Shown here: piece by piece, positions 17,428 to 49,027 of the stretch | Layout of the letters: every line of letters starts with the position of its first letter | Numbering within the stretch: the first letter of the stretch is position 1 | Assembly (NCBI GenBank): GCA_016463515.1 | Contig: JAEMRF010000003.1 | Location: 1-50,359, forward strand | Reading direction: 5' to 3' | Source of the DNA: Solirubrobacteraceae bacterium | Lineage (GTDB): Bacteria > Actinomycetota > Thermoleophilia > Solirubrobacterales > Solirubrobacteraceae | Length of the DNA: 50,359 nucleotides | Notes under the pieces: model-generated | Told to the model about the DNA's origin: nothing | The model's database searches: none | What the model saw: only the letters and a program-made list of their open reading frames with translations | Position numbers and translations under genes: made by a program

Positions 17428-17499
17428 GAAGTACCCCGCCGGACGGCCCGTGACCACACCAACGTTGAGCGGGTCTCGCGCCCGCGCGCGGCATACCGT
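17428..17499. promoter_or_regulatory. Bidirectional AACGTT-box promoter (WXG100-A / motor 2)
   Basis: The palindrome AACGTT at 17461-17466 lies 33 nt from the first base of TACCGT (17494-17499, plus strand) and also 33 nt from TACTTC on the minus strand (17433-17428). The plus-strand -10 ends 8 nt before the GTG at 17508, so the motor mRNA is probably leaderless. One symmetric box could activate both operons of module 2. Confidence 0.65.
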
Positions 17500-17507
17500 G
17501 CGGCCTC

Positions 17508-20500
17508 GTGAGTGGCCTGAGCGGGAGCGACATCACGGCGCTGGGCCTGACGGTCGAGCATGCCGGTGCACGAGAGGACGTCGTCGTGGAGCTGCCTGCG
17601 GGGGCGACCGTCGGCGCGCTCGCTCATGCACTCACCCTGCATCTGACGGAGCTCCCCGCGGTGATCGATCTGGCGGTGCAGCGCACCGGTGAGCGTCTGC
17701 CTCCCGACGCGGCCGCGATGGACCGCGACCTGCGCGCCGGCGACGTGGTGACGGCCATCCGCTCCAGCCGCTCGCCGGCAACGGTTCGGCACGGGCGCGA
17801 TACGGCGAGCGACCTGGGCGTGCGTCTTCGCGGCGCCGGAGTCCGCGCCCACGATGACGTCGTCCTGCGCGGCGTGGCCCTGCGCCCGAGCGAGTCACGG
17901 CGCCACCGCAGCTCCTCCACCACGGGCCCGATCGTTGCCACCTTGACCGTGCGCGGCGAGCGCACCGAAGTGCCGGTGGGCGAGCACGAGCTCTGCGGCG
18001 ACGCCTGGAGCGACCTGCAGCTCCTCGGGGCCGAGGATTGGACCGGGCGCTGCATCGTCCGGGCCGAGCCGGGACGGCTCTGGGTCGCTGCCGCACCCGA
18101 AGAACCTCCCGTGAGCGCCGACGGTTCGACCGTCGGCGCGGCCTGGGTGGAGCTCACGGACGGCAGCGAGCTGCGGCTCGGGCCTGCGCGCGCCACGGTC
18201 TCCGTCGTCGAGCCAGAGCACCCCCGGGCAGGTCGCAACCGCATGGTCCTCGGAGATCGCCTCGGTGAGCGGCCACGGCTCGACCTGGGCGTTGGCGGGT
18301 TCGTGCCGGTGAACCGGCCGCCGCGGAAGCTGAGCAGCTGGCGCCCCACGAAGATCGACCTGCCCGAGACGCCACGCCCGCAGCAGCGCATCCGTCTCCC
18401 GTTGGTGGCGTCGCTGATTCCGCTGGTCGCCGGCCTCGTGCTCTTCCTGGTGCTCGACAGCGTGATGATGCTGGCCTTCATGCTGCTCTCGCCGCTCATG
18501 GCGGCTGGCACCTACTTCAGCGACAAGCAACACCGCAGGCAGGAAGGCGAGCACTCGCAGACCCGGTTCGAGGCCCGACTCAACGAGGCGCATCGGCGGA
18601 TGGCTACCGCCCTCGACATCGAGCTCCGCGAGCGGCGCCAAGCGGCGCCGCCGGTCACCGAGCTGCTGCAGCGGGTCAATGCGCTCAGCCCGCTGCTCTG
18701 GGAACGACGCCCATGGGACCCCGACTTCATGTCGCTGCGCCTGGGGACCGGGAACCTGCCGGCCACGACCACCGTGGACTTCCGCGCGTCGTCCGACGTC
18801 GACCCCGACCCCCGCTTGCAGCAGCTGGTGAACGCCGGCCGGTTCTTGGTCGACGTGCCGGCCACCGTCCCACTTGCGCAGGCACCCATCATCGGACTCG
18901 CTGGCCACCGGGTCACGAGTTCAGACGTGGCCCGCTCGCTGGTGCTGCAGTCCGTCGCGCTCCACAGCCCCCTCGAGCTCGGGGTCGCCGCGGCGCTGGC
19001 GCCAGGCGCGGACGAGGGCTGGGACTGGCTGAAATGGCTTCCACACGTTCAGACGGCTGCGTCGCTGCTGGAGGTCACGCCCCTGGGCACCGGCCGCCGG
19101 GCAATCGATGTCCTCCGCGGGGTCCGCGAGCGCACCCACCGCGTCCTGGCCCAGCAGAAGTCGGCGCTGCGCACCGGCGACGACGGCGACGGTCCGGCGC
19201 TGCTGCTGATCATCGACGAAGCACTCCAGCTGGACCGCTCGCTGGTCTCTGAGATCCTCGGCAACGCTGGCGCGCTGCGGCACTGCGTGATCTGGGTCGG
19301 CAACGACCCACGGAGCCTGCCCGGTGAGTGCGGCACCACCGTGGACTGCGGCGTCAACGGCGTCGGGACCGCGACGTCGATGGCCGACGGCGCGCAGGAG
19401 ATCGGCGTTCGCCTGGAAGGGGCGACGATCCCGCAGGCGCGCTGGGCAGCGCGTGTGCTCGCCCCCACGCGTGACGCCACCCTGGCGGCAGGGTCGGCGG
19501 CCGTTCCCCACCGCGTCAAACTCGTGGACCAGCTCGGGCTCGGCGAGCCCACGGGTGCGCAGGTCGCCGAACGGTGGCAGCGCCGTCGTGGCGGGCTCGG
19601 CGCGCCCATCGGTATGGCCGCGGGTGAGCCGCTTGCCATCGACCTACGCACGGACGGTCCCCACGCGCTGATCGCCGGGACCACCGGTGCGGGCAAGAGT
19701 GAACTGCTGCGCACGATCATTGCCTCTCTGGCGGTGGCGCACCCGCCGAGCCGGCTGAACTTCCTGCTGATCGACTACAAGGGCGGCGCCGCGTTTGCGC
19801 CGTGTGCTGCCCTTCCGCACGTGCTCGATGTGGTCTCAGATCTCGACGCCGAACTCGGCGAGCGCGCACTGATCTCCCTCGATGCCGAGATGAAGCACCG
19901 TGAGCGGCTCCTTGCTGAGGCCCGTGCCGACAACCTCATCGACCTGGAGCGGCGTGCACCTGCCCTGGCCCCGCCCAACCTGCTGATCATGGTCGACGAG
20001 TTCGCCAAGCTGCGCGACGAGATTCCCGAGTTCGTCGACGGCGTCGTCGACGTCGCCCAGCGCGGCCGCACCCTCGGCATCCACATGGTGCTCGCCGCCC
20101 AGTCGCTGCGTAACTCGTTCACCCCGGCCGTCCGCGCCAACACCAACCTGCGCATCGCGCTGCGGGTCACCAGCGACACCGAGAGCCAGGACGTGATCGA
20201 GGCCAACGAGGCGGCCCGGATCCCGAGCGGTGAATCGATGCGGGGACGGGCCTACGCGCGCATCGGGCACGAGCGGCTCATCGAGTTTCAGTCTGCGCAC
20301 GTGAGCGGCCGCCACCGGCCACCGGGGGACGCGACGGTGCTCGTGCGGGAGTTCGGATTTGGGGACCTCCCCGTGCCGTCGGCGCGACGCGAGATCCGCG
20401 ACGATGGTCCGCCGCGCGCCGACGAAACCGACCTGGCCGTCGTCGCTGCAGCGGCGCGGGATGCCGCCGACCTCCTGGGGCTCCCGACGCCCCGCCCAGC

Positions 20501-22073
20501 GTGGACGCAGCCCCTGCCGGAGGAGCTCTCGCGCACCGCGATCCAGCGACACACCGACGCGCTTCGCGGTCGCTGCGCGGTCGGCCTGATCGACCAACCC
20601 AGCCAGCAGCGACAGGTTCCGCTCGTGCTCTCGCTCGATCGCGGACACGTGGCGATCTACGGCGCAGGAGGTGCAGGAAAGACCGTCGCGTTGCAGACCA
20701 TCGCCGCGTCGCTGGCCTGGGACGCGTCCCCGGCGGACCTTCATCTCTACGCGATCGACGCAGACTCCGGTCCGCTCTCGCTCATCGCGCCGCTCCCCCA
20801 CGTGTCGACGGTGGTGCCGGCAGGCGACGCCGAACGGGTCGAGCGGCTCCTGCAGCGGCTGGAGTCAGAGGTCCAGCGGCGGATGTCGATGCACGCCGCG
20901 ACCGGCGCCGCCAGCCTCACCGAATACCTCGAGCAGGGCCGCGGTGAGCCACTCCCTCGCATCGTGTTGCTGGTCGACGGATTCGGCGAGTTCACGAACA
21001 CCTACGACACCGCTCGGGCTGACTCGCTCTTTGACCGGCTGCTGGGGCTCTTGGGCAACGGCCGCGCCGTGGGCGTGCACGTGATCGTCACCGCCGACCG
21101 CAGGTCGTCGATCCGCTCGGCCGTGGCCGCGAGCTTCCCCCAACGCCTGCTGTTGCGCCAAGCCTCCAGCGACGACCTCGTGGGCTTTGGTATCCCGGCG
21201 AAGTTGGCGGACCGCACGACCCTCGGGGACGGACGCCTCTTCACCGCCGGCCAGGAGCTCGCGCAGTTCGCCCTGCCAGACCCCGCCCACGGGGCCACCG
21301 ACGCGGCCGACGGGTTCAGGATCCTCGGGGAGCATCTGGCCCATACCTGGCCGCGCCACCGCGCCCCTTCCATCGACACGCTCCCAGAGCGCATCGAGGC
21401 CAGCGCCCTGGATGGCGTTGCACCGACGATGTCCGCGCTGCCCATCGGCGTCGGTGGCGCGCAGCTCGGACCGATTTCCATCGATCTCACCGAGCGCCAC
21501 TTCCTGATCTCCGGTGGCTACCGAACCGGCCGAACGACGGCCCTCGCCGCGCTCGCGACCGCGACCCAGGCCAGCGCCGAGGTGGAGGCCATGTACCTCT
21601 TCGCGCCGCGTCGCTCTGCGCTCACCGACCTCGGTGGCTGGACCGACGTCGCGCGTGGCTCAGACGCCTGCACCGAGCTGGCCGCCCGGTTGGCCGCCGA
21701 GGTTGCCGGCCTGCCCGACGAGCTGCTGCCGCGCCTCGTGGTGGTGATCGACGACGGCGGCGAACTAAGCGATCCCGCCACGATGCTCGCCCTGGAGCGC
21801 CTCGTGCGGCTTGGCCGCGACCGCGGCGTGCGCGTGGTCGCCGCGCTCGAAACCACCGCCGCGCGGGCGCTCGGCAACCTCTGGTGTCGCGAGCTGCGAC
21901 GGGACGGGCACGGGCTGCTGCTCTCGCCCGATCTGATGGCCGATGGAGACCTGCTCGGCGTCATGCTCCCGCGACGCTCCAACGTCGCCGCGGCACCCGG
22001 CCGCGGCTATCTGGTCGCTCGGGCGCGCAGCGAACTCGTCCAAGTCGTGGCCCATCAGGAATCGCTCGCATGA
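17508..22073 (+). CDS. T7SS motor EssC/EccC-like, module 2
   Basis: A 1521-aa protein from GTG 17508. Residues 8-85 look like a ubiquitin/YukD fold (end pattern DRDLRAGDVVTAI). A weak FHA-like domain follows at about 140-225 but lacks a recognisable GR...SxxH...NG set. TM pair at about 300-340. Three FtsK-type ATPase modules: GTTGAGKS (about 728) with LLIMVDEFAKL, GAGGAGKT (about 1055) and GGYRTGRT (about 1340) with Arg in place of Lys. It parallels the motor at 6914-11251 domain for domain, with a degraded FHA. It is followed by a WXG100 gene with its own promoter. It likely exports the module 2 WXG100, EspC-like and CHAP proteins. Confidence 0.95.
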   Translation: MSGLSGSDITALGLTVEHAGAREDVVVELPAGATVGALAHALTLHLTELPAVIDLAVQRTGERLPPDAAAMDRDLRAGDVVTAIRSSRSPATVRHGRDTASDLGVRLRGAGVRAHDDVVLRGVALRPSESRRHRSSSTTGPIVATLTVRGERTEVPVGEHELCGDAWSDLQLLGAEDWTGRCIVRAEPGRLWVAAAPEEPPVSADGSTVGAAWVELTDGSELRLGPARATVSVVEPEHPRAGRNRMVLGDRLGERPRLDLGVGGFVPVNRPPRKLSSWRPTKIDLPETPRPQQRIRLPLVASLIPLVAGLVLFLVLDSVMMLAFMLLSPLMAAGTYFSDKQHRRQEGEHSQTRFEARLNEAHRRMATALDIELRERRQAAPPVTELLQRVNALSPLLWERRPWDPDFMSLRLGTGNLPATTTVDFRASSDVDPDPRLQQLVNAGRFLVDVPATVPLAQAPIIGLAGHRVTSSDVARSLVLQSVALHSPLELGVAAALAPGADEGWDWLKWLPHVQTAASLLEVTPLGTGRRAIDVLRGVRERTHRVLAQQKSALRTGDDGDGPALLLIIDEALQLDRSLVSEILGNAGALRHCVIWVGNDPRSLPGECGTTVDCGVNGVGTATSMADGAQEIGVRLEGATIPQARWAARVLAPTRDATLAAGSAAVPHRVKLVDQLGLGEPTGAQVAERWQRRRGGLGAPIGMAAGEPLAIDLRTDGPHALIAGTTGAGKSELLRTIIASLAVAHPPSRLNFLLIDYKGGAAFAPCAALPHVLDVVSDLDAELGERALISLDAEMKHRERLLAEARADNLIDLERRAPALAPPNLLIMVDEFAKLRDEIPEFVDGVVDVAQRGRTLGIHMVLAAQSLRNSFTPAVRANTNLRIALRVTSDTESQDVIEANEAARIPSGESMRGRAYARIGHERLIEFQSAHVSGRHRPPGDATVLVREFGFGDLPVPSARREIRDDGPPRADETDLAVVAAAARDAADLLGLPTPRPAWTQPLPEELSRTAIQRHTDALRGRCAVGLIDQPSQQRQVPLVLSLDRGHVAIYGAGGAGKTVALQTIAASLAWDASPADLHLYAIDADSGPLSLIAPLPHVSTVVPAGDAERVERLLQRLESEVQRRMSMHAATGAASLTEYLEQGRGEPLPRIVLLVDGFGEFTNTYDTARADSLFDRLLGLLGNGRAVGVHVIVTADRRSSIRSAVAASFPQRLLLRQASSDDLVGFGIPAKLADRTTLGDGRLFTAGQELAQFALPDPAHGATDAADGFRILGEHLAHTWPRHRAPSIDTLPERIEASALDGVAPTMSALPIGVGGAQLGPISIDLTERHFLISGGYRTGRTTALAALATATQASAEVEAMYLFAPRRSALTDLGGWTDVARGSDACTELAARLAAEVAGLPDELLPRLVVVIDDGGELSDPATMLALERLVRLGRDRGVRVVAALETTAARALGNLWCRELRRDGHGLLLSPDLMADGDLLGVMLPRRSNVAAAPGRGYLVARARSELVQVVAHQESLA

Positions 22074-22102: not shown

Positions 22103-22141
22103 AACGTTGACTGCGATTCGACCGCCTCCGCTCCTTACGGT
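22103..22141 (+). promoter_or_regulatory. AACGTT-box promoter of WXG100-B
   Basis: AACGTT (22103-22108) is 33 nt from the first base of TACGGT (22136-22141). The ATG at 22180 gives a leader of roughly 30 nt. Flanks read CC before and GAC after the box. Confidence 0.65.
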
Positions 22142-22179: not shown

Positions 22180-22470
22180 ATGAGTCAGATCAAGGTCACG
22201 GCCGAGGAACTGCACCGCGTCGCCGCGCACCTTCAGGTGACGGCCGCAGGCATCTCCGGCGACAACGCCCACGCGCTTGCGCTCGTCAACGGCGTCGCCC
22301 GGGAGGGGTGGCAGGGCGCTGCCTCCGCGCAGTTCATGGAGCTCTTCACGCTCTGGAAGTCGAGCTTCGAGCATCTCACCGATGCCCTGACCCAGATCAG
22401 CGCACTCCTCGAAGCAGGCGCGACGACCTACGAGACCGCTGAAGAGCACGTCCGTCGCTCGATGAGCTGA
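22180..22470 (+). CDS. WXG100 protein, module 2 copy B
   Basis: A 96-aa helical hairpin with Trp44-Gln-Gly46 and Tyr84-x-x-x-Glu88, closely similar to copy A. It is a probable secreted T7SS substrate and may form a homodimer or a heterodimer with copy A. It lies directly downstream of motor 2 but is separated by about 105 nt that hold its own AACGTT-box promoter, so it can be expressed more strongly than the motor. Confidence 0.92.
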   Translation: MSQIKVTAEELHRVAAHLQVTAAGISGDNAHALALVNGVAREGWQGAASAQFMELFTLWKSSFEHLTDALTQISALLEAGATTYETAEEHVRRSMS

Positions 22471-22523: not shown

Positions 22524-23024
22524 CTAGCTCGGGATCTGGCCGAAGACTTCGAACTCGCGGATCGGGCCTTCGATGGCGCAGTCATCGGTGCGCTTGGTGA
22601 CGGTGCAGTCCACGCGGACAGCCGTCCACCAATACTTCGCGGGTGTGTTGGTCCAGAAGGGCTGGAAGGCGTTGTAGACCGGCACCGTGTGGGTGAAGAC
22701 CTTCCCGCCTTCAGACTTCATCTCGCGGATGTAGGTGGACTTCTTCACCGAGCTCGCGTTGACGTCCTTGAGCAGGTTCTTGTTCTTGGAGACCACGACG
22801 AAGACCGGGCCGCCGTCGCTTCTGACCTTGAACGGGACCTGGGTAGAGACGGCCGTGCCGTAGCTGGCGCCTTGATCCTTGTGCTGCTCGGCATACGCCT
22901 CGGAGACGGGGAGCAGCAAGCTCGGCGCCGGCCCGGCTGCGGCCGGCACGGGCATCGCGAAGGCAGCTCCAAAGAGCATGGCGGCGCCGGCACGCCGCGC
23001 AGCAGACGGAACGGAGATCGACAT
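22524..23024 (-). CDS. Small secreted protein of unknown function
   Basis: 166 aa from ATG 23024. Signal peptide at about residues 1-30 (AGAAMLFGAAFAMPVPAAA). The mature part is strand-rich with aromatic residues (YWWTAVRVDC) and two cysteines, Cys140 and Cys149, likely a disulfide. No family recognised. The -10 TACGGT ends 7 nt before the ATG, so the mRNA is probably leaderless. It is divergent from the RING gene and shares its pair of AACGTT boxes, which ties it to the conjugation/T7SS genes. Confidence 0.72.
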   Translation of the reverse strand: MSISVPSAARRAGAAMLFGAAFAMPVPAAAGPAPSLLLPVSEAYAEQHKDQGASYGTAVSTQVPFKVRSDGGPVFVVVSKNKNLLKDVNASSVKKSTYIREMKSEGGKVFTHTVPVYNAFQPFWTNTPAKYWWTAVRVDCTVTKRTDDCAIEGPIREFEVFGQIPS

Positions 23025-23031: not shown

Positions 23032-23108
23032 ACCGTATCGATCCGTGCCCGCAGTTCCGAGCGCAGACCAACGTTGCGTTGCTCAACGTTGACTGCCGGA
23101 CCTACGCT
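23032..23108. promoter_or_regulatory. Divergent double AACGTT-box promoter (secreted protein / RING)
   Basis: Two boxes, AACGTT 23070-23075 and 23085-23090, lie 15 bp apart. The first is 33 nt from TACGCT (23103-23108) for the RING gene. The second is 53 nt from TACGGT on the minus strand (23037-23032) for the secreted protein. 33 and 53 differ by two helical turns. Confidence 0.6.
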
Positions 23109-23144: not shown

Positions 23145-24152
23145 GTGCCCCAACCTCCCAACTTCGCACCCACCCCCGACGCGGCCGTCGGCCTCCAGTG
23201 CCCGTATTGCCAGACCCAGATGGGCGCGATGGAGCTGGCCGCGGGCTGTGGCGACTGCGGGACCACCCACCATCAAGAGTGCTGGATCGAAAACCAGGGC
23301 TGCGCGGTGCCGGGCTGTGAGAGCGCCCCGGATCCACTCGCCGCAACCGCTGCCGCTCCTGCAGCGGAGTACGCCGGCGCAACCGCTGGGCCGTCCGCCC
23401 CAGCCGGGCGGATATCGATCCCGGTCGACGACGCGCCGCGCCGCGGCGGACTCGGGCGCCGCACCACCCCAACGGTCTCGGTCCCGACCGGTTTGCCACC
23501 GAGCCCTCGGAGCTCGCGTCGCCCGCTCGTGGCGATCGGTGTGGTCGTGCTCGTCGTTGCGGCGGTCGTCGGGTTTCTCCTCTCGTCGGGAGAGAACTCG
23601 ACCACCACCGCGAACGCTCCAGCCACCTGCGACAGCAAGCCCGGCTCCTGCACCGATCGCACGGTCGGTGGAACGCCGCACTCGCTGACGGAAGCCGAGG
23701 TCAAACGTGAGGTCCAGGACCTCATCCGTGGGTACTACGGCGCACTCATGAGCGGTACCGAGGCCGACCGTGAGCGCGCCCGCGGGATGCTGTCCGCGAG
23801 CGAGCAGGCCCGGCTGGACACCGACGCAGCCGCCGCGAGCCAATGGGAGAGCCAGGCCACGCGCATCAGCGACCTCCTTCAGGACGCCGATGCAGCGCAG
23901 GTCGTCAACGTGCTGAACTCGCTGGAGAGCAGCCAGAGCACCGGCGTCGCGCGCGTGCAGGTCACAGGGATGGGCTGGGCCGAAAGCAGCTGCGCGGGTG
24001 GAAACTTTGCCGGCGTGACGTGGGCCCAGCACGTCGGCGACGAAGCCACCGGCACCTGGCGCCTGGACCCCAACCCGAGCAAGGAGGGCCGCTTCACCGA
24101 CGGCGAGCTCGATCAAGCGCTCGGCGCGACCTGCCTGGCCAGCGCCCGGTAG
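23145..24152 (+). CDS. Membrane-anchored prokaryotic RING-type protein (E3 candidate)
   Basis: 335 aa from GTG 23145, chosen because the promoter lies at 23103. Residues 19-58 bind zinc in RING-like order: Cys19-x2-Cys22, Cys35-x2-Cys38, His42/His43, Cys46, Cys53, Cys58. This matches what I know as prokaryotic RING family 1. A flexible part with RISIPVDDAP (89-98) leads to a TM at about 128-147 and an outside domain of about 185 residues with three Cys. The RING end is predicted cytoplasmic, where E1, E2 and Ubl act, so it could direct Ubl transfer to proteins at the membrane or T7SS. E3 activity is inference; some such zinc domains only bind proteins. Confidence 0.8.
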   Translation: MPQPPNFAPTPDAAVGLQCPYCQTQMGAMELAAGCGDCGTTHHQECWIENQGCAVPGCESAPDPLAATAAAPAAEYAGATAGPSAPAGRISIPVDDAPRRGGLGRRTTPTVSVPTGLPPSPRSSRRPLVAIGVVVLVVAAVVGFLLSSGENSTTTANAPATCDSKPGSCTDRTVGGTPHSLTEAEVKREVQDLIRGYYGALMSGTEADRERARGMLSASEQARLDTDAAAASQWESQATRISDLLQDADAAQVVNVLNSLESSQSTGVARVQVTGMGWAESSCAGGNFAGVTWAQHVGDEATGTWRLDPNPSKEGRFTDGELDQALGATCLASAR

Positions 24153-24176: not shown

Positions 24177-25103
24177 TCAGCGAAGCGATGCGGACGTCGG
24201 CCACAGCGGCGCCAGCGGAGCGTCGCTCGGCAACACCGCCGCGAGCTCCGCGGCGGTCTGTTCGAGGCGGTCCAGACTCGTGCGCAGGCACTCGCTGACG
24301 TGGCCCGGCACGAGCCACTGGGCCTCACGCAGCGGTGCGGCCATACCGTGGGTGCCTTGGATACGCAGCACGGTGCGCGCAAGCACGCCGCTCGCTGCTC
24401 CCTTGGGCCCAGCGGCCAGCCGGCTCTTGGGGAGGGGCGTAGGCCAGCGCGCCGCGAGCGGCACGGTCACGTCGACGACCACGCCAGCGGCGACGTCCTG
24501 AACTCGATAGGTACCGCCGGCATCCTCGACCAACTCGCGAGCGCTCGTGATGCCCCGCCCCGGGATCAACGGCTTGCCGGGGAGTCCACCCGGGCTCGTG
24601 ACGATGACCGAGAGTGCGCGCCCTCGCGTGGTGGCCCGGACGCTGACGGTGGCGTCGGGTGGTCCGTGGCGAGCTGCGTTGCCGAGCGCCCCGCAGACCG
24701 CCACGGTGAGCGCCGCGGCTTGCGCGGGAGCGAGCGTGCGGCGCTGCGTGGCGATCTCGCTGCGCTCGCGCACGACCATCGACGGGTATCGCGACGCGAC
24801 ACCGCCGGCGGCACGGCCCAGCACCGCGCCGACCGTGAGGGTCGGGCGGCCGCTGCTGGCTCCGACGTCGGCCAGTAGCGCCAAGAGTGCCAGCAGCTCG
24901 TCGCTGCGGGCCAGACTGCGCTCGGCGGTCGCCACTGCGACCGCGCGAGCCTGCGGATCGTCCAGCGCGGTGGCCGCGTCACGCCACCGGCTGGTTGCCA
25001 GCGAGCAGGCGCGAGCCGCGTGCTCCAGCGCGTCGAGCGCGGCCACGATCTCGCCGCCGCTGAACGGCGCCGTCCCGGGGCCCGCTGCAGCGAGGTCGGT
25101 CAC
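24177..25103 (-). CDS. Soluble histidine-kinase-like ATPase
   Basis: 308 aa, no TM. Residues 1-110 are helices that could form a dimerisation part, though no clear phosphoacceptor His motif stands out. The HATPase region (about 150-235) has the N-box-like GNAARHG, the PGGLPGK segment and GRGITSARELVEDAGG, as in NarL-type sensor kinases. A C-terminal helical extension of about 70 residues is unusual. GTG 25103 overlaps the stop of the response-regulator-like gene (GTGA), so the pair is co-translated. It is convergent with the RING gene 24 nt away. It may control the AACGTT-box genes, but there is no direct evidence. Confidence 0.72.
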   Translation of the reverse strand: MTDLAAAGPGTAPFSGGEIVAALDALEHAARACSLATSRWRDAATALDDPQARAVAVATAERSLARSDELLALLALLADVGASSGRPTLTVGAVLGRAAGGVASRYPSMVVRERSEIATQRRTLAPAQAAALTVAVCGALGNAARHGPPDATVSVRATTRGRALSVIVTSPGGLPGKPLIPGRGITSARELVEDAGGTYRVQDVAAGVVVDVTVPLAARWPTPLPKSRLAAGPKGAASGVLARTVLRIQGTHGMAAPLREAQWLVPGHVSECLRTSLDRLEQTAAELAAVLPSDAPLAPLWPTSASLR

Positions 25104-26236
25104 GCGGCGGACGGCACCACCCGCGCCAGGGCCGCAGAGGCCTGCTGGGAGGGCTCGTGGGCCAGGTCGGCGAGCACGTGGAGGAGGAAGAGGAGGCGCA
25201 CTCGTTCGGCGTCGTCCGGGGCGGAAGCTTCGAGCACGCGGGAGACCTGCAGCTGGCGCCCGGCTTGATCGCGTGAGTCCAGGGCGCCAAGTGCGCGGTG
25301 CCAGACGCGGCCGCAGCGTCGGACCAGAGCGATGTCGGCATCGGAGATTCGGGCGAGCTCGAGCAACCGCTCATCAGCCAGCGCCGAGACGGCAAGATCG
25401 ACCGTGCCTGCGCGGACGGGCTCGGTGAGCGTGTCGCGCACGCACCCCGCGAGGAACCCTTGCGCGAGCGGGACTACGAGGTCCACCGGGACGCCGCGGG
25501 CTTCCTTGACCGCGCGCTTGAAATGGGCAACGGCTGATCGCGCGCCGCTGATGTCCTTGAGCTCGCGGTTCGTGATCGAGTCGCTGACGCCCTGCGCGAG
25601 GTTGCCGACGATGTAGAGGTCGCCAGGGCGCGGCTCGAACCCGAAGTGCTCGACGAAGCGATGCTTGATTGACCGATCGACCTCGACCGGGGTCTGCGCA
25701 CGCGGGAACGCGCGGCGGCGGCCGCCAGCCTCCGGATCGGTCACGTGGCGCAGGGCCTCGCAGGCGTCGCCATGAAGATCCTCTCCGGTGGTTTGCAGGA
25801 CCGCCGTGACGCAGGTACCCAGTTCGGCGAGCACCGCGAAGCAGTTGTGGGCCGTCATCGCGACCGGCGTGCAGCGCGCGCGAAGCCGAGGATCATCGTC
25901 GATCGTTCGCAGCAGTCGCGCGCCGCGCATCTGCCCCGTGCGGCTCTCCAGGTCGATGAACGCCACCGCGTGATCGACATGCTCCACGACCGTGAGGACC
26001 TCGGTGCGGCTGCTGCAGTCCACGACCTCACAGCCGGCGTAGCGCCCCAGGTCAGCGCCCACCGCGCGCTGGGCGCTGAGCAGCAGGTGCCGACGGAGCG
26101 GCAACTGCTGGGGATCGTCGTCATAGACGACGATCGCAACCCGCGGCTCAGCGCGCATCGGCCGGCGGCTCGGGTGCATGGTGCGTGCGCGGCGCACCGG
26201 GACGGCCTGCAGCGCACGATCGGCGACGCCCGTCAT
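25100..26236 (-). CDS. Response-regulator-like protein with receiver-like head and diverged HTH
   Basis: 378 aa if started at ATG 26236; ATG 26158 is also possible (352 aa). The head begins RVAIVVYDDDPQQ and contains AVAFIDLESRTG, fitting a receiver with acidic pocket and phosphoacceptor-like Asp, though the later Thr/Lys are not obvious. A segment FGFEPRPGDLYIVGNLAQG followed by SDSITNRELKDI and FKRAVKEA resembles a diverged LuxR/sigma4-like helix-turn-helix. A long helical domain fills the C-terminus. It is the first gene of a pair with the soluble kinase. A paralogous plan is seen in the gene at 45347-46600. It is a candidate regulator of this locus. Confidence 0.62.
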   Translation of the reverse strand: MTGVADRALQAVPVRRARTMHPSRRPMRAEPRVAIVVYDDDPQQLPLRRHLLLSAQRAVGADLGRYAGCEVVDCSSRTEVLTVVEHVDHAVAFIDLESRTGQMRGARLLRTIDDDPRLRARCTPVAMTAHNCFAVLAELGTCVTAVLQTTGEDLHGDACEALRHVTDPEAGGRRRAFPRAQTPVEVDRSIKHRFVEHFGFEPRPGDLYIVGNLAQGVSDSITNRELKDISGARSAVAHFKRAVKEARGVPVDLVVPLAQGFLAGCVRDTLTEPVRAGTVDLAVSALADERLLELARISDADIALVRRCGRVWHRALGALDSRDQAGRQLQVSRVLEASAPDDAERVRLLFLLHVLADLAHEPSQQASAALARVVPSAA

Positions 26237-26425
26237 CGCGGCACCGCGCCCCGGTGGCGCCACCACGTCGACGTGCAATGCGTTCGCGCTGCGGCGCGGC
26301 TAGGGGTCGGACGCTGCGGATCGTGATACATCGGCTCGCCGCGCATGTTGCCCGTGCGCCAGCCCGACGACAAACACTTTGCATTGGAATTCGCCTTTGC
26401 CTACCGCGCTGCACGTTGGTGATAG

Positions 26426-29879: not shown

Positions 29880-29971
29880 ACCCTGCCGACCTGAGCGCGC
29901 AGACCAAGGTCAACGTTGGCCGTCGAAAAGGCCTCCAGACGTTGCTCGGCGCCCCGGCGCGTTCTTATGGT
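29880..29971. promoter_or_regulatory. Divergent AACGTT-box promoter (zinc-ribbon protein / VITEDDL operon)
   Basis: AACGTT at 29912-29917 is 54 nt from TATGGT (29966-29971) for the plus-strand gene and 32 nt from CAGGGT on the minus strand (29885-29880) for the zinc-ribbon gene. Leaders of about 30 nt follow on both sides. Confidence 0.5.
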
Positions 29972-30002: not shown

Positions 30003-30602
30003 ATGAGCCGCACCGTCATCACCGAGGACGACCTCGCCCCCGACCCTCCGCCAGCGACCGGCGAGCACGCTGCGGCGGGCGTGCCGCCTGCGCCTGCGCC
30101 CCCGCTCGTTGGGAGCAGGCACGGTGCGGCGAGCCAGCTGAACCGGGCCTGGATGGCCGGCGTGGCGGTCCTTGCGATCCTCGCGATCGGCGGAGCATTC
30201 CTGCTCGGTCAGGCGTCGCGGCCAAGTGAGGACGAAGTGGCCGGCGAAGTGCGTGACGCGATCCGCGAAGTGCGCGACGGCATGCGCGCCGAGCGCGCTG
30301 CGATCACCAAGCGCGCCTTGGAGCGGCAGCGGATCGCGCTGCGGGTCAGCCACCGTCGCGAGCTCGCGGCGCTGCGCAAGCGGTACGGGATCCCTGCGCC
30401 GACGGCGCAGGCCAAGGCGCCGGTTGCCAAAGCACCGGCAGCCGTGCAGGCCCCCACTGGTGGAGGCACGTCCGGTGGCAGCGCGCCACGGGCGCCCTCG
30501 CCACCTCCCGCGCCAACACCGAACCCCGAGCCAAAGCCTCAGCCCAACGATCAGCCCACGCCAAACGCCATCCGCGTAGAGCCGAGTGCTGATCTCAAAT
30601 GA
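30003..30602 (+). CDS. Membrane protein with N-terminal VITEDDL motif, copy 1
   Basis: 199 aa from ATG 30003. Begins SRTVITEDDL, then a Pro/Ala linker, one TM at about 50-70 (AGVAVLAILAIGGAFLLG), a charged helix (about 75-125) and a long Pro-rich tail. The short N-terminus is cytoplasmic by charge. The same N-terminal phrase recurs in the next gene, so the two are paralogues whose conserved part is this short motif. No family recognised; probably a structural or scaffold subunit. It begins an operon of three genes running to 32056. Confidence 0.75.
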   Translation: MSRTVITEDDLAPDPPPATGEHAAAGVPPAPAPPLVGSRHGAASQLNRAWMAGVAVLAILAIGGAFLLGQASRPSEDEVAGEVRDAIREVRDGMRAERAAITKRALERQRIALRVSHRRELAALRKRYGIPAPTAQAKAPVAKAPAAVQAPTGGGTSGGSAPRAPSPPPAPTPNPEPKPQPNDQPTPNAIRVEPSADLK

Positions 30603-34545: not shown

Positions 34546-34556
34546 GTCCTGCTCCG

Positions 34557-34817
34557 TCAGCCTGCGGTGATCTCGGCGACGAGCCGCAGCACGTCGCCGT
34601 CGCCCACGCCCGCCGTCTCGAGCGTCTCGTTGTCGCCGATCTGACGACCGCTGCGCTTGTGGTGGAATTTGTAGGAGAGCGGCTGGCCGTCGGGGCCAAC
34701 GCTGGGAAGCTCCATGAGCTCGATCAGCTTGGCCATGATCCGGCCGGCGGGAGCGTTCCCGGGGACGGTCGCGTCCTCGGTCTTGCTCCCGGTCGCGTCG
34801 ATGACGGTGATGTCCAT
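34557..34817 (-). CDS. Free ubiquitin-like protein (YukD/EsaB-like) ending in Gly
   Basis: 86 aa from ATG 34817. The order is strand (MDITVIDATG), strand, helix (AGRIMAKLIELMEL), strands (LSYKFHHKRSGRQI) and the closing LETAGVGDGDVLRLV, the ubiquitin/YukD plan. It ends EITAG, so a flexible tail with a C-terminal Gly is exposed without processing, as required for E1 activation; ubiquitin itself ends in GG. YukD/EsaB proteins are T7SS parts, and here the protein is followed by its presumed E1 after 11 nt. An AACGTT sequence lies 28 nt upstream but without a -10 at the usual distance. Confidence 0.88.
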   Translation of the reverse strand: MDITVIDATGSKTEDATVPGNAPAGRIMAKLIELMELPSVGPDGQPLSYKFHHKRSGRQIGDNETLETAGVGDGDVLRLVAEITAG

Positions 34818-34875
34818 GGGTGGTCGTGATCCTCGGAGTCGTTGAACGTTGCGTTGGGATGAGCCCGGCGGAGGC

Positions 34876-35853
34876 TCAGTCGCGCTCTTGGAAGAGCAGG
34901 GTCGTCGCGCCGATCTGGATCTGGTCGCCCGAGCGCAGCGGTCGGGCTCGGATGCCAGCGCCATTGACGGCGACGGGTGCGCCGTCGAGCGAGCTCAGGA
35001 CGCGCCGTGGACCGTCCACCGCAATCTGCGCGTGGAACGGCTGGGCGCCCGGGTCCTTGATCAGCGTGATCTGGCACTTGGGTGCCGATCCGATCGACGT
35101 CACGTCGTGGTAGAGGATGAACTCCTTGCCAGCCATGCCGCCCGCGATCACCCTGATCCAGGCTTGACGGCGAGCTCCTTCCACGAGGCCGATCGCCGCG
35201 CCGGTGCAGATGCCGATCGCGGCCAGTCCGATGAGCCGCGCTTCCGCGTCACCATCGACCCGCTGACCGACGTAGTGGAACAGCGCGCCGCCGATGGCCC
35301 CACCGATCAAACCGCCGATCAACCCGTTGACCGCCTTGCGACCGGAGCGCTCGGTCAGGCCACCGACGAGGCCGATGCCCACGCCGAACGCCGCCCAGGC
35401 CAGCGCTCGCAACAGATAAAAGCGCGGCGCGCCTGGGTCTTGGGTCTGCTGGAGCTGGTCGAACAGCAGGTACGACAGCGCCCCCGCCACTGCGCCTACG
35501 AGCGCCCCGACCGCCGCCGCCAGCGCCCCGCGAACCAGTGCGCGGTCCCAGATGCCGTCACGCACATCGGATGCCGCGCCGACGATGAGTGAGTAGATGG
35601 TCGCAAGGACCGCGGTGTAGAGCGCGACCGGTCCCAGGCTGCGGCCGTCGGCCACGCCGGCTGCCTCCGTCACCGCCCAGCCGATCACGATCGCGACGTA
35701 GCCCAGCAGCGCGCCACCGACGGCGAGCCCGAGGGTCGCCTCCCACGCCGGGCGGCCACCGACGTCGCCACCGATCCGGGAGCGAGCAGGGCCGGCGCTG
35801 ACCTTCGGAAGCGCTGAGAGGTCGCGCTCGCCCGGGGTCGTCGGGGCGCTCAC
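34876..35853 (-). CDS. Multi-pass membrane protein with C-terminal FHA domain
   Basis: 325 aa from GTG 35853, overlapping the E2 stop by 4 nt. About six hydrophobic segments (residues 30-240) are rich in Gly and Ala with GxxxG spacing (NGLIGGLIGGAIGGAL), suggesting tightly packed helices. The C-terminal 85 residues are an FHA domain (EFILYHDVTSIGSAPKCQI, FHAQIAVDG, VNGAGI), although the usual Arg of GR is Ser and the SxxH is replaced by PFHA, so phospho-Thr binding is uncertain. It may be the membrane platform that gathers E2, Ubl and phosphorylated T7SS proteins. Confidence 0.82.
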   Translation of the reverse strand: MSAPTTPGERDLSALPKVSAGPARSRIGGDVGGRPAWEATLGLAVGGALLGYVAIVIGWAVTEAAGVADGRSLGPVALYTAVLATIYSLIVGAASDVRDGIWDRALVRGALAAAVGALVGAVAGALSYLLFDQLQQTQDPGAPRFYLLRALAWAAFGVGIGLVGGLTERSGRKAVNGLIGGLIGGAIGGALFHYVGQRVDGDAEARLIGLAAIGICTGAAIGLVEGARRQAWIRVIAGGMAGKEFILYHDVTSIGSAPKCQITLIKDPGAQPFHAQIAVDGPRRVLSSLDGAPVAVNGAGIRARPLRSGDQIQIGATTLLFQERD

Positions 35854-36491
35854 GCGCTCGGCTCCCGGCGCAGCGTGATCGCAAAGTCCTCGTCGTCGGC
35901 GAGCGGCACCGTCGTCGTGCTCTCCGTCGCCGCCGATGGCGCTTCGCCGGTGGCAGCTGCAGACGCAGGGCGCAGCTCGATGTCGAAGTCGGCAGTCCCG
36001 AGATCGACATCGCCGATCGGGAGGAGCTCCTCGTGCTCGGCCACCCACCGAGCCGCCACGGCGTTGAGCGGGCTCCCCACGTTGTACACGCGGAACTGGA
36101 GCATCTCGCCCATCTTCACGATGATGTCCGTCAGGGGCTGGCCCGCCGACCAGTAGTCGGCGATGCAGTACTTCGTCGGATCGACGTTGGGATGGAACAC
36201 GTCGCTCTTGGGCACCGCGATCGGCTGCTCACGCGGGTAGCCGAGCGGCAATTGCAGGTCGACGATGTGCTCCTCGGCCACGAACGGCTGGTCGCCCTCG
36301 ATGCGCAGGCTCTTCAGGAGATAGGTGATCCGGTAGCGCTCGGGCGGCATGCCGCCCAGTGGCTCGACCCGCACGTGCGGATGACCCGCCAGCTCAGCGC
36401 GGATGGCCTCAAAGTCAGCCATCAGGCGCCGCTGACGCGGGCTCATCGACGGCTGGACGGGCGGGGTTTGGGGCGGCGTAGGGCTCGACAT
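35850..36491 (-). CDS. E2-like ubiquitin-conjugating enzyme
   Basis: 213 aa from ATG 36491 (GTG 36524 is possible). The UBC fold (about 20-155) shows the strand run before FHPNV with His100-Pro-Asn102, then catalytic Cys109 in YCIADYW with Trp114, and the following helix LTDIIVKMGEML. HPN and Cys spacing matches active E2 enzymes. The C-terminal tail carries two copies of a short motif, ADFDIELRP (167-175) and EDFAITLRR (201-209), that also occurs in other proteins of the locus. First gene of the five-gene conjugation operon, divergent from the secreted-domain protein at 36604. Confidence 0.9.
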   Translation of the reverse strand: MSSPTPPQTPPVQPSMSPRQRRLMADFEAIRAELAGHPHVRVEPLGGMPPERYRITYLLKSLRIEGDQPFVAEEHIVDLQLPLGYPREQPIAVPKSDVFHPNVDPTKYCIADYWSAGQPLTDIIVKMGEMLQFRVYNVGSPLNAVAARWVAEHEELLPIGDVDLGTADFDIELRPASAAATGEAPSAATESTTTVPLADDEDFAITLRREPSA

Positions 36492-36504: not shown

Positions 36505-36596
36505 ATGCTGCCAGAGGGGGTCACCCCACCTGTGGCAAACGTTGGCGGCGAATGCCGGGTCCAGCACGTGCGCTGGCGGGCCGGAGGCTCTACGGT
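36505..36596. promoter_or_regulatory. Divergent AACGTT-box promoter (E2 operon / 36604)
   Basis: AACGTT at 36538-36543 is 53 nt from TACGGT (36591-36596), which ends 7 nt before ATG 36604 (leaderless). On the minus strand it is 33 nt from CAGCAT (36510-36505), a CANNNT-type -10 placed upstream of the E2 ATG at 36491. Confidence 0.55.
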
Positions 36597-42808: not shown

Positions 42809-42837
42809 GTCGTCGCCGCCGGTCGTTGACCGATGGC

Positions 42838-42904
42838 CAACGTTCGCGGCCCAAGGTTTGCGGCTCAAGGTTGACGAGCGCGGCCGTGCTTCGGGGCGTA
42901 CGTT
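42838..42904 (+). promoter_or_regulatory. Triple 14-bp repeat and promoter upstream of the aminoacyltransferase gene
   Basis: CAACGTT (42838), CAAGGTT (42852) and CAAGGTT (42866) start exactly 14 bp apart. The last lies 32 nt (counted from its AAGGTT) from TACGTT (42899-42904). Leader to the ATG at 43098 is about 185 nt; it contains the 10-bp palindrome CCCGATCGGG (43025-43034) and AAAGGA before the ATG, otherwise nothing recognised. Confidence 0.5.
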
Positions 42905-45346: not shown

Positions 45347-46600
45347 CTACGCCGCCACGTTGCCGGTTACGTTGCCGTCGACGGCAACCGTGAACGCGCG
45401 GAGATCAGCGACTTCGAGATCGGCCGCGAGCGCAAGTTGGTCAGCTGGCATGCCATGCCAGCGGAGTCGTCCGTCGAGGTGCTCGACGCCCGGGGGGAGC
45501 GGCAACTCGCGTTCTTGGAGCAGGCGAAGCGCGGCTGCGGCTCTGGCCTCGGGGTGGTAGAGCTCGTCTTGTCGGGCGTCGTCGAGCGTCACCAGCGCCT
45601 CATCGAGCTGGACGAGCAAGCCGTCGATCATCTCGTCGACGTTGTGCGCGCCTGCGGCATGGTGTGCGGCGCGACGACCGGCAGCCCACCGCCGTTCATC
45701 GCGGACTTCGTCGGCGGCAGGGGCACCGCGCTTGGCTGGCCGGCGTTCACGCCACCCCGTGATGAGCTCATCCATCGCTTGGATCTCGTCGACCTCCTCA
45801 TCGAGGAGACCGGCCGCGCGCACGAGCGAGGGCGAGGACCGCGTGAGCTTGGCGCCGAGCTCAAGACTGAGCGAGACGGCAGGACGCTCGCTCAAAGGAC
45901 GTTTCGCTGCCATACGGACCAGCGCCTGAGCAGCGGCCGTGGCGACCGCCGCCGCCGAGTTGCGGTGCTCTCCGGCAACCATCCGGGCGAGCTTTCGCAT
46001 CCGCGTCTCGGCGTGGCCGGTAGATCCGGCGGCGCCGACCTCCAAGAGCTCGGCCGCGAGGGCACGACGGTCTCCTCCCGTCGCCAAGCGACAGAGCGCC
46101 GGCTCGATCCAGGGCTCCCACTCCACGCCGAACTCCTCGGCAAACCACGAGCGCCACGACTCCTCGTCGGCTGGGCTGGATCCCAGGCTGGCCGGCCAGG
46201 ACTCTCGGCCTGCAGCGACCTGCTGCAGTTGGGCCAGCTCGGACGCCCCATCATGACCGGCCGCCACGAATCCATACGCCCCGCTGCGGCGCACACCGAG
46301 CATCGCATCCTGCGCCGTATGTGCGGACCAGGCCACTGGGCGCACGTGCGCCGTGCGCGGATTTCGGCGCAGGCGCCGGATCAGCCGCTCCCCGGGCCGG
46401 TCGAGCGCGAAGCGGTCCGTCGCGAGGAGGTCGACCAGAACGACGGCCTCCGGCGGGAGTGACTCAGCGACCAAGCCGACGGCAGTCGAACTGGTTGTCG
46501 GCAGCACCACGGCGCCATCAAGGGCCTCGCGCACACGAGTCACACGCCACCGGAGCGCGTCGGGGTTGCTGTCGAAGACGATGATCGGCGGGGTAGACAT
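45347..46600 (-). CDS. Receiver-like regulator paired with the two-part sensor kinase
   Basis: 417 aa from ATG 46600 (ATG 46648, overlapping the kinase stop, is possible). The head (1-125) is receiver-like: PIIVFDSNPDAL, VVLVDLLA with the central Asp, and AWSAHT. The middle has EEFGVEWEPWIEPALCRLATG and TRMRKLARMVAG, similar in plan to the FGFEPRPG...HTH part of the regulator at 25100-26236. The C-terminal 230 residues are helical. The acidic pocket is reduced (DS instead of DD), so it may work without phosphorylation. Downstream of, and probably co-transcribed with, the sensor gene. Confidence 0.6.
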   Translation of the reverse strand: MSTPPIIVFDSNPDALRWRVTRVREALDGAVVLPTTSSTAVGLVAESLPPEAVVLVDLLATDRFALDRPGERLIRRLRRNPRTAHVRPVAWSAHTAQDAMLGVRRSGAYGFVAAGHDGASELAQLQQVAAGRESWPASLGSSPADEESWRSWFAEEFGVEWEPWIEPALCRLATGGDRRALAAELLEVGAAGSTGHAETRMRKLARMVAGEHRNSAAAVATAAAQALVRMAAKRPLSERPAVSLSLELGAKLTRSSPSLVRAAGLLDEEVDEIQAMDELITGWRERRPAKRGAPAADEVRDERRWAAGRRAAHHAAGAHNVDEMIDGLLVQLDEALVTLDDARQDELYHPEARAAAALRLLQERELPLPPGVEHLDGRLRWHGMPADQLALAADLEVADLRAFTVAVDGNVTGNVAA

Positions 46601-46634
46601 AGCAGCGAGGTGATGCAGGCCGTGGAGCGTGGCG

Positions 46635-48878
46635 TCACTGCCGAGCATAAGAGAGGGTGAGCGCGTCGGGTGTGGAACGCACACCGATACCCAGCGCCTC
46701 GGCGACCAGCCGCAAGTCCCGAAGTCGGTCCGGTTCTGGGGGGCCGAGCGACGGCTGGGCCACGAGCGACAACACGAGCGTGCTGCCGTCGCTTCGATGC
46801 CACTGCGGCTCGACCCTCACCAGACGCCTGCGACCAAGCATGCCCTGCGGAGTGCAGCTCGCGCGCTCGTCGGCTGCCAGTGCGGCAAGCTCGAAGAGCG
46901 TGATGCGATCCACGGCACCGGCCGCAGCTTCCGCACCCGGCCGATCCCCCGGGGCCAGGGTCCCGCCGAGCGCAGCAGCAAGGCCCGCGGTCACGATCTC
47001 CTGAGGGTCGACCGACGATCGTGCCGCTCGATCGAGGGCAGCGAGCGCACGTTCAAGAGCCGTTGCAGCGGCGACGGTCGACGCATCGGTGGTGTGGCGT
47101 GCCAGCACGTTGATGGCGTCGTGCTGCAGCGACAATCCACGCACGATGGCCGCGGCGAGGCTCGCCCGGCCCAGCGCATCGGCGGCGCGCTCTTCGAGCC
47201 CACTCGCCCGCTCAGTGAAGCGCAGGATGGTGCGCACGAGGAGGTACACGCCGAAGGGGTACACAACGAGCAACCCAGCGCTGCCGGCTGCGTTCGCCGC
47301 GAGCAGTGGGGCGACGGCCGCGAGCCGAAGCGCTTCCGCAACCAGCCAGCGGTTCCGTCCGGCGGTGAGCAGGACGATCGCTGGGACCAACACGCTGGTC
47401 GTTGCCGGGACCACCGTATCGGGCCCGTTTGGAGACCACGCGAACGCTGCAGCCAGCAGCGCGGAGACCACGCTGGCCAGGACCGCGCCGCCGATCGGAT
47501 CCAAACCACCGACTCCGCCTCTTCCCGCGCGGATCAAGCCCTCGATGACGATGGCACCCGCCGCCATGAGCATCCAGGTCTCACCGAAGCTGTCCGAGAC
47601 GGAGGTCGCGGTCAGGGTGTCGCCGACATACCCGGCAAGGCGCACGGCGTCGAGCAGGCCGAATCCAAATCGCTCGAGTTCGCGGTGAACCGACAGCGTT
47701 CCGAGCTCGGCCGCGGTCGGGAGCGCCTTGGCCTCGACCTGCACTTCCAGACCGACTCCATGTTCACCGGCGAAGTACCGGGCCGTCCCGCCGACGCGTG
47801 CGAGCTGTCGCTGTGACCATGCCGAACCGACCCCGGCACGTGTGGGCATGGTGCCGCCTCCGTCGTCCTCGATCCTGAGCAGAAGGACGCCACGTTGGAG
47901 GTCGGCGCTGACGAGGATCACGTGCGCCCCTGGCGCATGGCGAATCACGTTGTCGATCTGCCGCCTGATCACGCTGAGCAGCGCGTCCGCGACGACGGCT
48001 CTCAGCGCCACCCGCTCGGTGCCCTCCGAGACCTCCACCTCGAGGGTCGGGCCGTCGGGGTCGAGCAGCTCTCGGCTGATGCGCTCGAGCAGCGTGTCGA
48101 GCTGGGTCGTGTGCTGGACCGTTGACTCGCCAAGGTCGGCCTCTTGCGCGAGCCGTTCGCGCAGCAGCCGGAGCTCCGGTGAGAGGTCGTCCCCACGCTG
48201 GCGAAGTGCGGCGGCCAGCCGGTCAGCTTCGCGACGCACGTCGGCGAGCGCATGCCGTAGCCGGTCTACGACACCGAGCTCGTGGACTTCGACCAGGTGC
48301 CAGCGGTTGAGGGTGGCCGCAGCGCTCCCCGTCACTCGACCCATCCAGAGGCCGGCGGCCACCGAGGCCCCGAAAGCGAGGAAGGCGGTCGCGAAGGCGC
48401 CGTTGCCCTCGAACCCGCCGACGTCGCCATCGACGACCACCCACGTGGGGACCACCACGCACGCCATCACCGTGAGTCCGGCGATCCAGCGCCGCCCCGG
48501 CAGCGCCAACCCCGCAAGGATCAGCCAGCACTGAGCACCGGTGATGTAGGCCCGAGCGGGCCCCGAGCCCCCCAGCGCGATGACGACCGTGGCGGCGGCC
48601 AGCGCGCACGCGACGAGCGTTCCCGGGCGCCGCAGCACCCACCCGCGGAGCCGACGCGGCTGTGCCACGAAGAGCGCCCCAACCAGTGCCTGAATGACCC
48701 CAAGACCCACGAGCAGCTGGGCTGCTGGGCCGACGTCGAGACTGGTGGCCCCCAGCGAGTACGCGAGGAGCAGCGTGGTCCCGCCAAACACCTGAACCCC
48801 GCCGACGAACCGCTGCAGCGCGAGTGCGTGGTCGCGGCCGGGGTGTTCGACCTGAAGGTGGGGGAGTGGCGTTGACAT
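46635..48878 (-). CDS. Sensor histidine-kinase-like protein with two membrane blocks
   Basis: 747 aa from ATG 48878 (GTG 48968 possible). Five to six TMs (about 25-200) are followed by a coiled linker and an HATPase domain with RQIDNVIRHAPGAHV (N box), EDDGGG (G1) and AGVGSAWSQRQLARVGG (G2). Unusually, a second block of TMs follows (about 430-570), then a long helical part (GLSLQHDAINVLARHTTD) and a final alpha-beta segment like a degenerate second kinase core. The ATPase in mid-protein suggests a fusion of two sensors. It pairs with the receiver-like gene just downstream. Confidence 0.75.
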   Translation of the reverse strand: MSTPLPHLQVEHPGRDHALALQRFVGGVQVFGGTTLLLAYSLGATSLDVGPAAQLLVGLGVIQALVGALFVAQPRRLRGWVLRRPGTLVACALAAATVVIALGGSGPARAYITGAQCWLILAGLALPGRRWIAGLTVMACVVVPTWVVVDGDVGGFEGNGAFATAFLAFGASVAAGLWMGRVTGSAAATLNRWHLVEVHELGVVDRLRHALADVRREADRLAAALRQRGDDLSPELRLLRERLAQEADLGESTVQHTTQLDTLLERISRELLDPDGPTLEVEVSEGTERVALRAVVADALLSVIRRQIDNVIRHAPGAHVILVSADLQRGVLLLRIEDDGGGTMPTRAGVGSAWSQRQLARVGGTARYFAGEHGVGLEVQVEAKALPTAAELGTLSVHRELERFGFGLLDAVRLAGYVGDTLTATSVSDSFGETWMLMAAGAIVIEGLIRAGRGGVGGLDPIGGAVLASVVSALLAAAFAWSPNGPDTVVPATTSVLVPAIVLLTAGRNRWLVAEALRLAAVAPLLAANAAGSAGLLVVYPFGVYLLVRTILRFTERASGLEERAADALGRASLAAAIVRGLSLQHDAINVLARHTTDASTVAAATALERALAALDRAARSSVDPQEIVTAGLAAALGGTLAPGDRPGAEAAAGAVDRITLFELAALAADERASCTPQGMLGRRRLVRVEPQWHRSDGSTLVLSLVAQPSLGPPEPDRLRDLRLVAEALGIGVRSTPDALTLSYARQ

Positions 48879-48988
48879 CGGCGAACCGTTGCGCCCAAAG
48901 GCAACCAGAGCGTAGATGCGCCAGCGGCCGAACGCGAACGTCGAGACCGGCTCCGCGCCAAGGTCCACGCAATATCAATGCGACCTAC

Positions 48989-49027
48989 AACGTTGACCAG
49001 AGCACTCCGCGAGCGACTGCCTAGCTT
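48989..49027 (+). promoter_or_regulatory. AACGTT-box promoter of the PPC protein
   Basis: AACGTT (48989-48994) lies 33 nt from TAGCTT (49022-49027), which ends 8 nt before ATG 49036, giving a probable leaderless mRNA. Confidence 0.6.

What the first reader, a model, noticed from the sequence alone, without database searches (positions are those of the whole stretch)
17428..49027. AACGTT box at fixed spacing from the -10 defines a candidate regulon
AACGTT occurs upstream of genes with constrained distance to a TANNNT or CANNNT -10: 33 nt at 17461 (both strands), 22103, 23070, 36538 (minus) and 48989; 32 nt at 29912 (minus); 53-54 nt at 23085 (minus), 29912 (plus) and 36538 (plus). Assuming the -10 starts at -12, the box centres near -42 or -62, the classic positions of an activator touching RNA polymerase, two helical turns apart. 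The genes are motor 2, both module 2 WXG100 genes, RING, the E2-Ubl-E1-JAMM operon, the zinc-ribbon protein and several secreted or membrane proteins. At this GC content about three AACGTT are expected by chance in the window; about a dozen are seen, mostly in short intergenic gaps.
Basis: partly seen in the sequence, partly recalled or inferred. Interest (0 to 1): 0.88.

Follow-up and report, generated by a model that had tools for sequence, protein, structure and literature searches.

The report
Private activator box for secretion-ubiquitin locus
In one actinobacterial genome a short DNA sign sits at a fixed distance from the start signals of many genes of a single secretion and ubiquitin-like gene cluster, and practically nowhere else in that genome, as if one dedicated protein switched the cluster on together.

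Summary
AACGTT occurs 12 times in the window; the rest of the 3.94-Mb assembly predicts 1.8. AACGTT 33 nt before TANNNT occurs four times genome-wide, all four in this window. Among all hexamers and spacings of 12-80 nt it is the top signal, beyond the best of 100 shuffles. Three more promoters have the box at 53-54 nt. Four of these seven promoters place TANNNT 13-14 nt before a start codon, as expected of leaderless genes, which supports the -10 assignments. The seven promoters have no better than random -35 elements. The core is CAACGTTG. Boxes with the spacing lie only from the second secretion/ubiquitin-like module onward; the first module, conserved in the family, has none. Most likely the box binds a locus-specific activator at about -42.5 and -62.5. 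The regulator is unidentified; the best candidate is an atypical response regulator at 25100-26278. No relative examined has the box, but none has the same module. No experiment supports regulation yet.

The parts
17461..17466 (+). box CAACGTTG core, 33 nt before -10 at 17494 (+)
17494..17499 (+). -10 TACCGT of the FtsK/EccC-like motor gene 17508; leaderless (14 nt to start codon)
17508..22073 (+). FtsK/SpoIIIE-type secretion motor of module 2
17428..17433 (-). tentative -10 TACTTC at 33 nt on the minus strand (not TANNNT), before WXG100 gene 17070-17360
17070..17360 (-). WXG100 protein
22103..22108 (+). box, 33 nt before -10
22136..22141 (+). -10 TACGGT
22180..22470 (+). WXG100 protein
23070..23075 (+). 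box, 33 nt before -10 at 23103 (+)
23103..23108 (+). -10 TACGCT
23145..24152 (+). Prok-RING_1 membrane protein (E 6.9e-6, below Pfam gathering score)
23085..23090 (-). box, 53 nt before -10 at 23037 (-); paired with 23070, 15 bp apart
23032..23037 (-). -10 TACGGT; leaderless, start codon 23024 is 13 nt on
22524..23024 (-). hypothetical protein, no family hit; N terminus looks like a signal peptide (by eye)
29912..29917 (+). box, 54 nt before -10 at 29966 (+); also 32 nt before CAGGGT on minus strand (tentative)
29966..29971 (+). -10 TATGGT; implies gene start at 30003 (MSRTVITEDD...)
29880..29885 (-). tentative -10 CAGGGT of the zinc-ribbon gene 28188-29840
36538..36543 (+). box (AAACGTTG), 53 nt before -10 at 36591 (+); also 33 nt before CAGCAT on minus strand (tentative)
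36591..36596 (+). -10 TACGGT of membrane protein gene 36604; leaderless (13 nt)
36505..36510 (-). tentative -10 CAGCAT of the E2-FHA-Ubl-E1-JAMM operon
32081..36422 (-). operon: E2-like (weak UQ_con), FHA, YukD-like Ubl, ThiF E1, JAB/JAMM
48989..48994 (+). box, 33 nt before -10
49022..49027 (+). -10 TAGCTT of gene 49036; leaderless (14 nt)
49036..50268 (+). predicted secreted protein (by eye; no Pfam hit)
25100..26278 (-). RR1: receiver-like domain plus unmodelled helical output domain; candidate regulator
24177..25103 (-). HATPase protein in operon with RR1
45347..46684 (-). RR2, distant homologue of RR1; present in genus relatives without an E1 match

Best explanation
CAACGTTG is the operator of a locus-specific transcription activator. 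It binds centred near -42.5 (four promoters) or near -62.5 (three promoters) and recruits RNA polymerase to promoters that have a TANNNT -10 but no -35 element. This switches on together the second type VII-like motor and a WXG100 protein, a RING protein, secreted or membrane proteins and, less surely, a second WXG100 gene, the zinc-ribbon gene and the E2-FHA-Ubl-E1-JAMM operon. Shown by computation: box enrichment, fixed spacing, restriction to this locus, leaderless-type -10s, lack of -35. Inferred: that the box is bound, that binding activates, and that transcription starts 12 nt after the first base of the -10. Candidate regulator (about 0.4): RR1 (25100-26278) with its HATPase partner (24177-25103).
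For: 4 of 4 genome-wide AACGTT-N26..28-TANNNT are in this 50-kb contig, while the 139 AACGTT outside give 0 at 33 nt and 2 at 53 (Fisher P 3e-5 for 33, 2.7e-7 for 33/53/54). Top signal in an unbiased hexamer-by-distance scan. CAACGTTG 6 here against 0.25 expected. Four of seven promoters are leaderless-type with TANNNT 13-14 nt before the start codon, as described for Actinobacteria (PMC3160421, passages). -35 matches are 2 or 3 of 6, mean 2.6, against 2.4 at random. Spacer DNA between box and -10 is on the whole no more alike than random: 6 pairs 19-46% identical, mean 31%, against a random mean of 29% and 95th percentile of 46%, so the shared spacing is not a recent copy. RR1 is beside the boxes; its partner HATPase hits the sensor UhpB weakly, and the paralogue HK2 hits MacS, UhpB and NarQ weakly (that these pair with NarL/FixJ regulators is recalled). 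Foldseek of the RR1 model finds response regulators on top, StyR first.
Against: No binding, expression or mapped starts. Box not seen at this spacing as a cluster in relatives. Five of 12 boxes have no fitting -10. Three of the claimed target promoters depend on weak -10s. RR1's output domain has no recognised DNA-binding family (homologues) and the structure models are poor (pLDDT 47-48). RR1's own upstream region has no box.
Confidence: 0.65

Rival explanations
1. The box is the operator of a locus-specific repressor, or of a dual regulator, that blocks polymerase at the -35 region.
For: A box centred at -42 would overlap polymerase; the box is a perfect palindrome like many repressor operators; 23085+ lies 18 nt before a -10.
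Against: Repressors tolerate many positions, here only two helically phased positions occur; the promoters lack a -35, so they would be weak without help.
Confidence: 0.17
2. The box is part of the promoter of an alternative sigma factor with a long spacer.
For: Constant distance to the -10.
Against: A 27-nt gap between box and -10 exceeds known sigma70-family spacers (recalled); the same box also stands at 53-54 nt; it is a palindrome and occurs between divergent genes.
Confidence: 0.06
3. Chance or composition: the pattern was picked out of many possible ones.
Against: Unbiased scan of all hexamers and spacings and genome-wide counts exclude it for the 33-nt set.
Confidence: 0.03
4. The activator idea is right but the regulator is encoded elsewhere or is the paralogue RR2 (45347-46684).
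For: RR2 lies within the box region; RR1 has no recognised DNA-binding domain.
Against: RR2 relatives exist in genus members without an E1 match and without a cluster of the 33-nt pattern; the C175 copy of HK2-RR2 has no box upstream.
Confidence: 0.35

Closest known systems
Class I / class II activator-dependent promoters (CRP-like positions recalled; E. coli NarL at ogt, PMC7419079, passages read)
   Same: A palindromic site at a fixed position near -42..-45 or -62..-78.
   Different: New motif CAACGTTG, actinobacterial host, regulator unknown; NarL sites at ogt derivatives are centred at -44.5, -67.5 and -77.5, not -42.5/-62.5.
DegU~P control of the Bacillus subtilis type VII system (PMC3701619, title, abstract start and passages)
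   Same: A two-component regulator of the NarL/FixJ kind (recalled) switches on a type VII system.
   Different: The passages seen show no such box; here many separate promoters of one locus share a box, and the regulator is only a candidate.
Type VII secretion subtypes T7SSa-j (PMC11217815, abstract and passages)
   Same: FtsK-type motor, WXG100, YukD-like protein, kinases and FHA proteins.
   Different: A term search of that survey finds no ThiF or JAB; one subtype, T7SSi, has a LytR-like regulator.
Prokaryotic Ub-like operons with E1, E2 and JAB (PMC1779556, passages)
   Same: E1-like, E2-like, JAB and Ub-like genes in predicted operons.
   Different: Here beside a type VII module and possibly under the same operator.

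Membership tests
Activator-dependent (class II/class I) promoter set | operator at a constrained, helically phased distance from the -10 | tested here: met
   33 nt x4, 53-54 nt x3
Activator-dependent (class II/class I) promoter set | poor or absent -35 element | tested here: met
   seven promoters 2-3 of 6 matches to TTGACA, random mean 2.4; the no-box module 1 promoter at 6519 has 5 of 6
Activator-dependent (class II/class I) promoter set | binding raises transcription through contact with polymerase | not testable with these tools
   needs footprint and reporter
NarL/FixJ response regulator (for RR1) | receiver domain | tested here: inconclusive
   no Pfam hit for RR1; a homologue hits Response_reg weakly, E 0.24; model and Foldseek receiver-like, best E 7e-3; conserved lysine not seen by eye
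NarL/FixJ response regulator (for RR1) | LuxR-type (GerE) HTH output domain | tested here: inconclusive
   no Pfam hit up to E 5 and no NCBIfam hit up to E 10; homologues none; model of domain helical but pLDDT 48
Conserved regulon | same box before orthologous genes in relatives | tested here: not met
   no 33/53/54 spacing in 27 E1 loci or 9 type VII loci; none carries the same module

The most novel reading that the evidence does not exclude
A small family of atypical response regulators with an undescribed output domain (RR1, RR2 and kin, seen only in genomes of this family in the searches made) includes a member that acts as the private activator of a type VII secretion plus ubiquitin-like conjugation module, through CAACGTTG at -42.5 and -62.5. 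Secretion and Ub-like tagging would then be one programme.
Probability: 0.3. Interest if true: 0.72.

Novelty: new member of a known kind. Interest (0 to 1): 0.55.

Why it matters
Bacterial Ub-like conjugation systems with E1, E2 and JAMM are mostly known from gene neighbourhood, and what they serve is largely open. A shared operator that groups such an operon with a particular secretion motor, its WXG100 proteins, a RING protein and secreted proteins would be functional evidence that they work together. It names the genes to test as one unit and separates this module from the neighbouring, box-free type VII module.

Tried and rejected

Conservation of the box: AACGTT-N26..28-TANNNT in 151 genomes, its own included (90 have a hit, mostly scattered and about as many as the reversed control) and CAACGTTG-N25..27-TANNNT in 396 phylum genomes, its own included (119 have a hit; only G574 and G728 were followed up, and with G027 they proved to have many background hits). 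No second genome with a cluster was found, but hits in the other genomes were not looked at one by one.

RR1 relatives: order 2 of 232 genomes, counting its own, phylum 1 of 396, itself, profile of RR1+RR2 in the class 4 of 399, counting its own. No DNA-binding domain named. Two structure predictions were poor; I did not search with the second model. A profile of RR1+RR2 against solved structures gave nothing below E 0.5.

Autoregulation of the HK2 operon by box 48989: rejected, because its likely -10 (TACGCT, 48914 minus) is conserved on contig C175, where no box lies upstream.

Degenerate boxes (AAGGTT at 42867, 32 nt before TACGTT 42899) were seen but not counted as members.

Full report
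What the window is. The window is one whole contig (C253) of a 3.94-Mb, 669-contig, 93% complete assembly. My gene model and Pfam scans give two type VII-like modules. Module 1 (about 1130-14523) has a motor, a WXG100 protein, kinases and a CHAP protein. Module 2 (about 17070-42808) has a second motor, two WXG100 proteins, a RING protein, a zinc-ribbon protein, membrane proteins and the E2-FHA-Ubl-E1-JAMM operon. Box 48989 and gene 49036 lie beyond it, next to the HK2-RR2 genes.

Is the box real? AACGTT occurs 12 times; shuffles give 3.24 on average and 0 of 100 reach 12. The rest of the genome gives 1.8 per window length. CAACGTTG occurs 25 times in the genome, 6 of them here, 0.25 expected. 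I looked at the flanks of 18 of the 19 others without annotating them. Nine of 12 AACGTT are intergenic against 6.5% intergenic sequence in my model.

Is the spacing real? AACGTT with TANNNT 32-34 nt downstream occurs four times in the genome, all here and all at exactly 33. With spacings 28-58, nine hits lie outside, none at 33 and two at 53; the boxes of these two are not CAACGTTG. Here 53-54 nt occurs three times: 23085 minus, 29912 plus, 36538 plus. The listing omits 23085 minus, apparently because it gives one of two hits that end at the same place; I count it. Fisher tests: P 3e-5 for 33 alone, 0.004 for 53-54 alone, 2.7e-7 together. These treat the flanks as independent. To correct for picking, all hexamers at all spacings 12-80 before the 38 TANNNT of the window were scored: AACGTT at 33 is first with P 2.8e-10, and the other four listed hits are shifted readings of the same motif. 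The best of 100 shuffled windows is 1.9e-7.

Are the -10s real? Of 38 TANNNT, five lie 12-14 nt before a start codon of my model (one of these starts, 23024, was moved upstream by me because an in-frame ATG stands there). Four of the five carry the box. TANNNT about 12 nt before the start is the sign of leaderless genes in Actinobacteria (PMC3160421, passages); TANNNT is also the common -10 of M. tuberculosis (PMC3898074, passages). The seven box promoters have no -35: 2 or 3 of 6 matches to TTGACA, against a random mean of 2.4. The module 1 WXG100 promoter (TAGGGT 6519), which has no box, has TTGTCA with an 18-nt spacer, 5 of 6; five other no-box TANNNT checked have 1-3 of 6, so a poor -35 is not confined to box promoters. 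The DNA between box and -10 is on the whole no more alike than random (mean 31% against 29%, highest pair 46%), so the arrangement is not a recent duplication.

What fails. The two CANNNT cases (36538 minus, 29912 minus) are at the edge of chance (P 0.05). So the link of the E2-Ubl-E1-JAMM operon, the zinc-ribbon gene and the 17070 WXG100 gene to the box is tentative, although their divergent partners are well supported. Boxes 680, 27234, 27365, 34845 and 42839 have no fitting -10.

Conservation. E1 orthologues were found in 4 of 146 family genomes, counting its own, and in 27 loci of the genome collection. None of the 27 has the box at 33, 53 or 54 nt; L088 has two at 52 and L090 one at 32, both in DNA of about 50% G+C. 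Ten of 146 family genomes, counting its own, have a related motor. I fetched 9 loci from 8 of the other nine, leaving out G061 as a near copy of G035; no locus has CAACGTTG or the spacing. In G054, G071 and G035 these loci correspond to module 1, which has no box here either. So the regulon appears private to this lineage's module 2 region, and the comparison cannot confirm it by conservation.

Regulator. RR1 (25100-26278) with an overlapping HATPase gene (24177-25103) lies amid the boxes. RR1 is 27% identical to RR2 (45347-46684; E 5e-5). RR2-like proteins occur in genus relatives G001 and G003 that have no E1 match, so RR2 is less likely to be the module's own regulator. RR1 has no Pfam or NCBIfam match. 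Its model is poor, but receiver-like in the N-terminal part, and Foldseek puts response regulators first, with StyR, FixJ, RcsB and spr1814 among them, at E no better than 7e-3. The HATPase and HK2 proteins hit UhpB, and HK2 also NarQ and MacS, weakly; that such kinases pair with NarL/FixJ regulators is recalled. By eye the output domain of the family reads like a LuxR-type helix-turn-helix, a lead and not a test.

How it most likely works. Taking the start 12 nt after the first base of the -10, the box centres are at about -42.5 and -62.5, two helical turns apart. An activator there can touch polymerase and replace a missing -35. NarL at the E. coli ogt promoter works at -44.5, -67.5 and -77.5 (PMC7419079, passages), and DegU~P switches on a type VII system in B. 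subtilis (PMC3701619, passages).

Literature. Searches for AACGTT with promoter and regulon gave 10 papers; titles and abstract starts show none on this. CAACGTTG anywhere with promoter and binding gave 150 papers, of which 12 were listed and seen; none is on a bacterial operator by title and abstract start. Solirubrobacter with type VII secretion gave none. Subscription papers and preprints were not searched.

Verdict. A real, locus-restricted operator-like element with activator geometry; regulator and activity unproven.

Noticed in passing
window 50305-50359 and G000:C175 1-4341 (L143): A second contig of the same assembly carries HK2-RR2-phosphoribosyltransferase at 83/85/99% protein identity and shares a terminal 55-mer (reversed) with the window end: a strain variant or second copy; on C175 neither gene 49036 nor the box lies between that 55-mer and HK2.
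   Followed up: partly
34557-34817: The YukD-like Ubl ends in ...EITAG, a single glycine rather than Gly-Gly, although E1, E2 and JAMM genes are beside it.
   Followed up: no
25100-26278, 45347-46684; L143, L144, L145, L146, L061, L152: A family of receiver-like proteins with an unmodelled helical output domain, found only in genomes of this family in the searches made.
   Followed up: partly
1130-14523: Module 1 matches type VII loci of family genomes G054, G071 and G035; its WXG100 promoter at 6519 has a good -35 and no box.
   Followed up: partly
42837-42904: AACGTT followed by two AAGGTT copies, the last 32 nt before TACGTT at 42899: possible degenerate boxes before gene 43098.
   Followed up: no
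L081, L082, L083: E2-FHA-Ubl-E1-JAMM type operons in Solirubrobacter and Patulibacter; the related motor was not found in G022, G075 and G080 at E 1e-100.
   Followed up: partly
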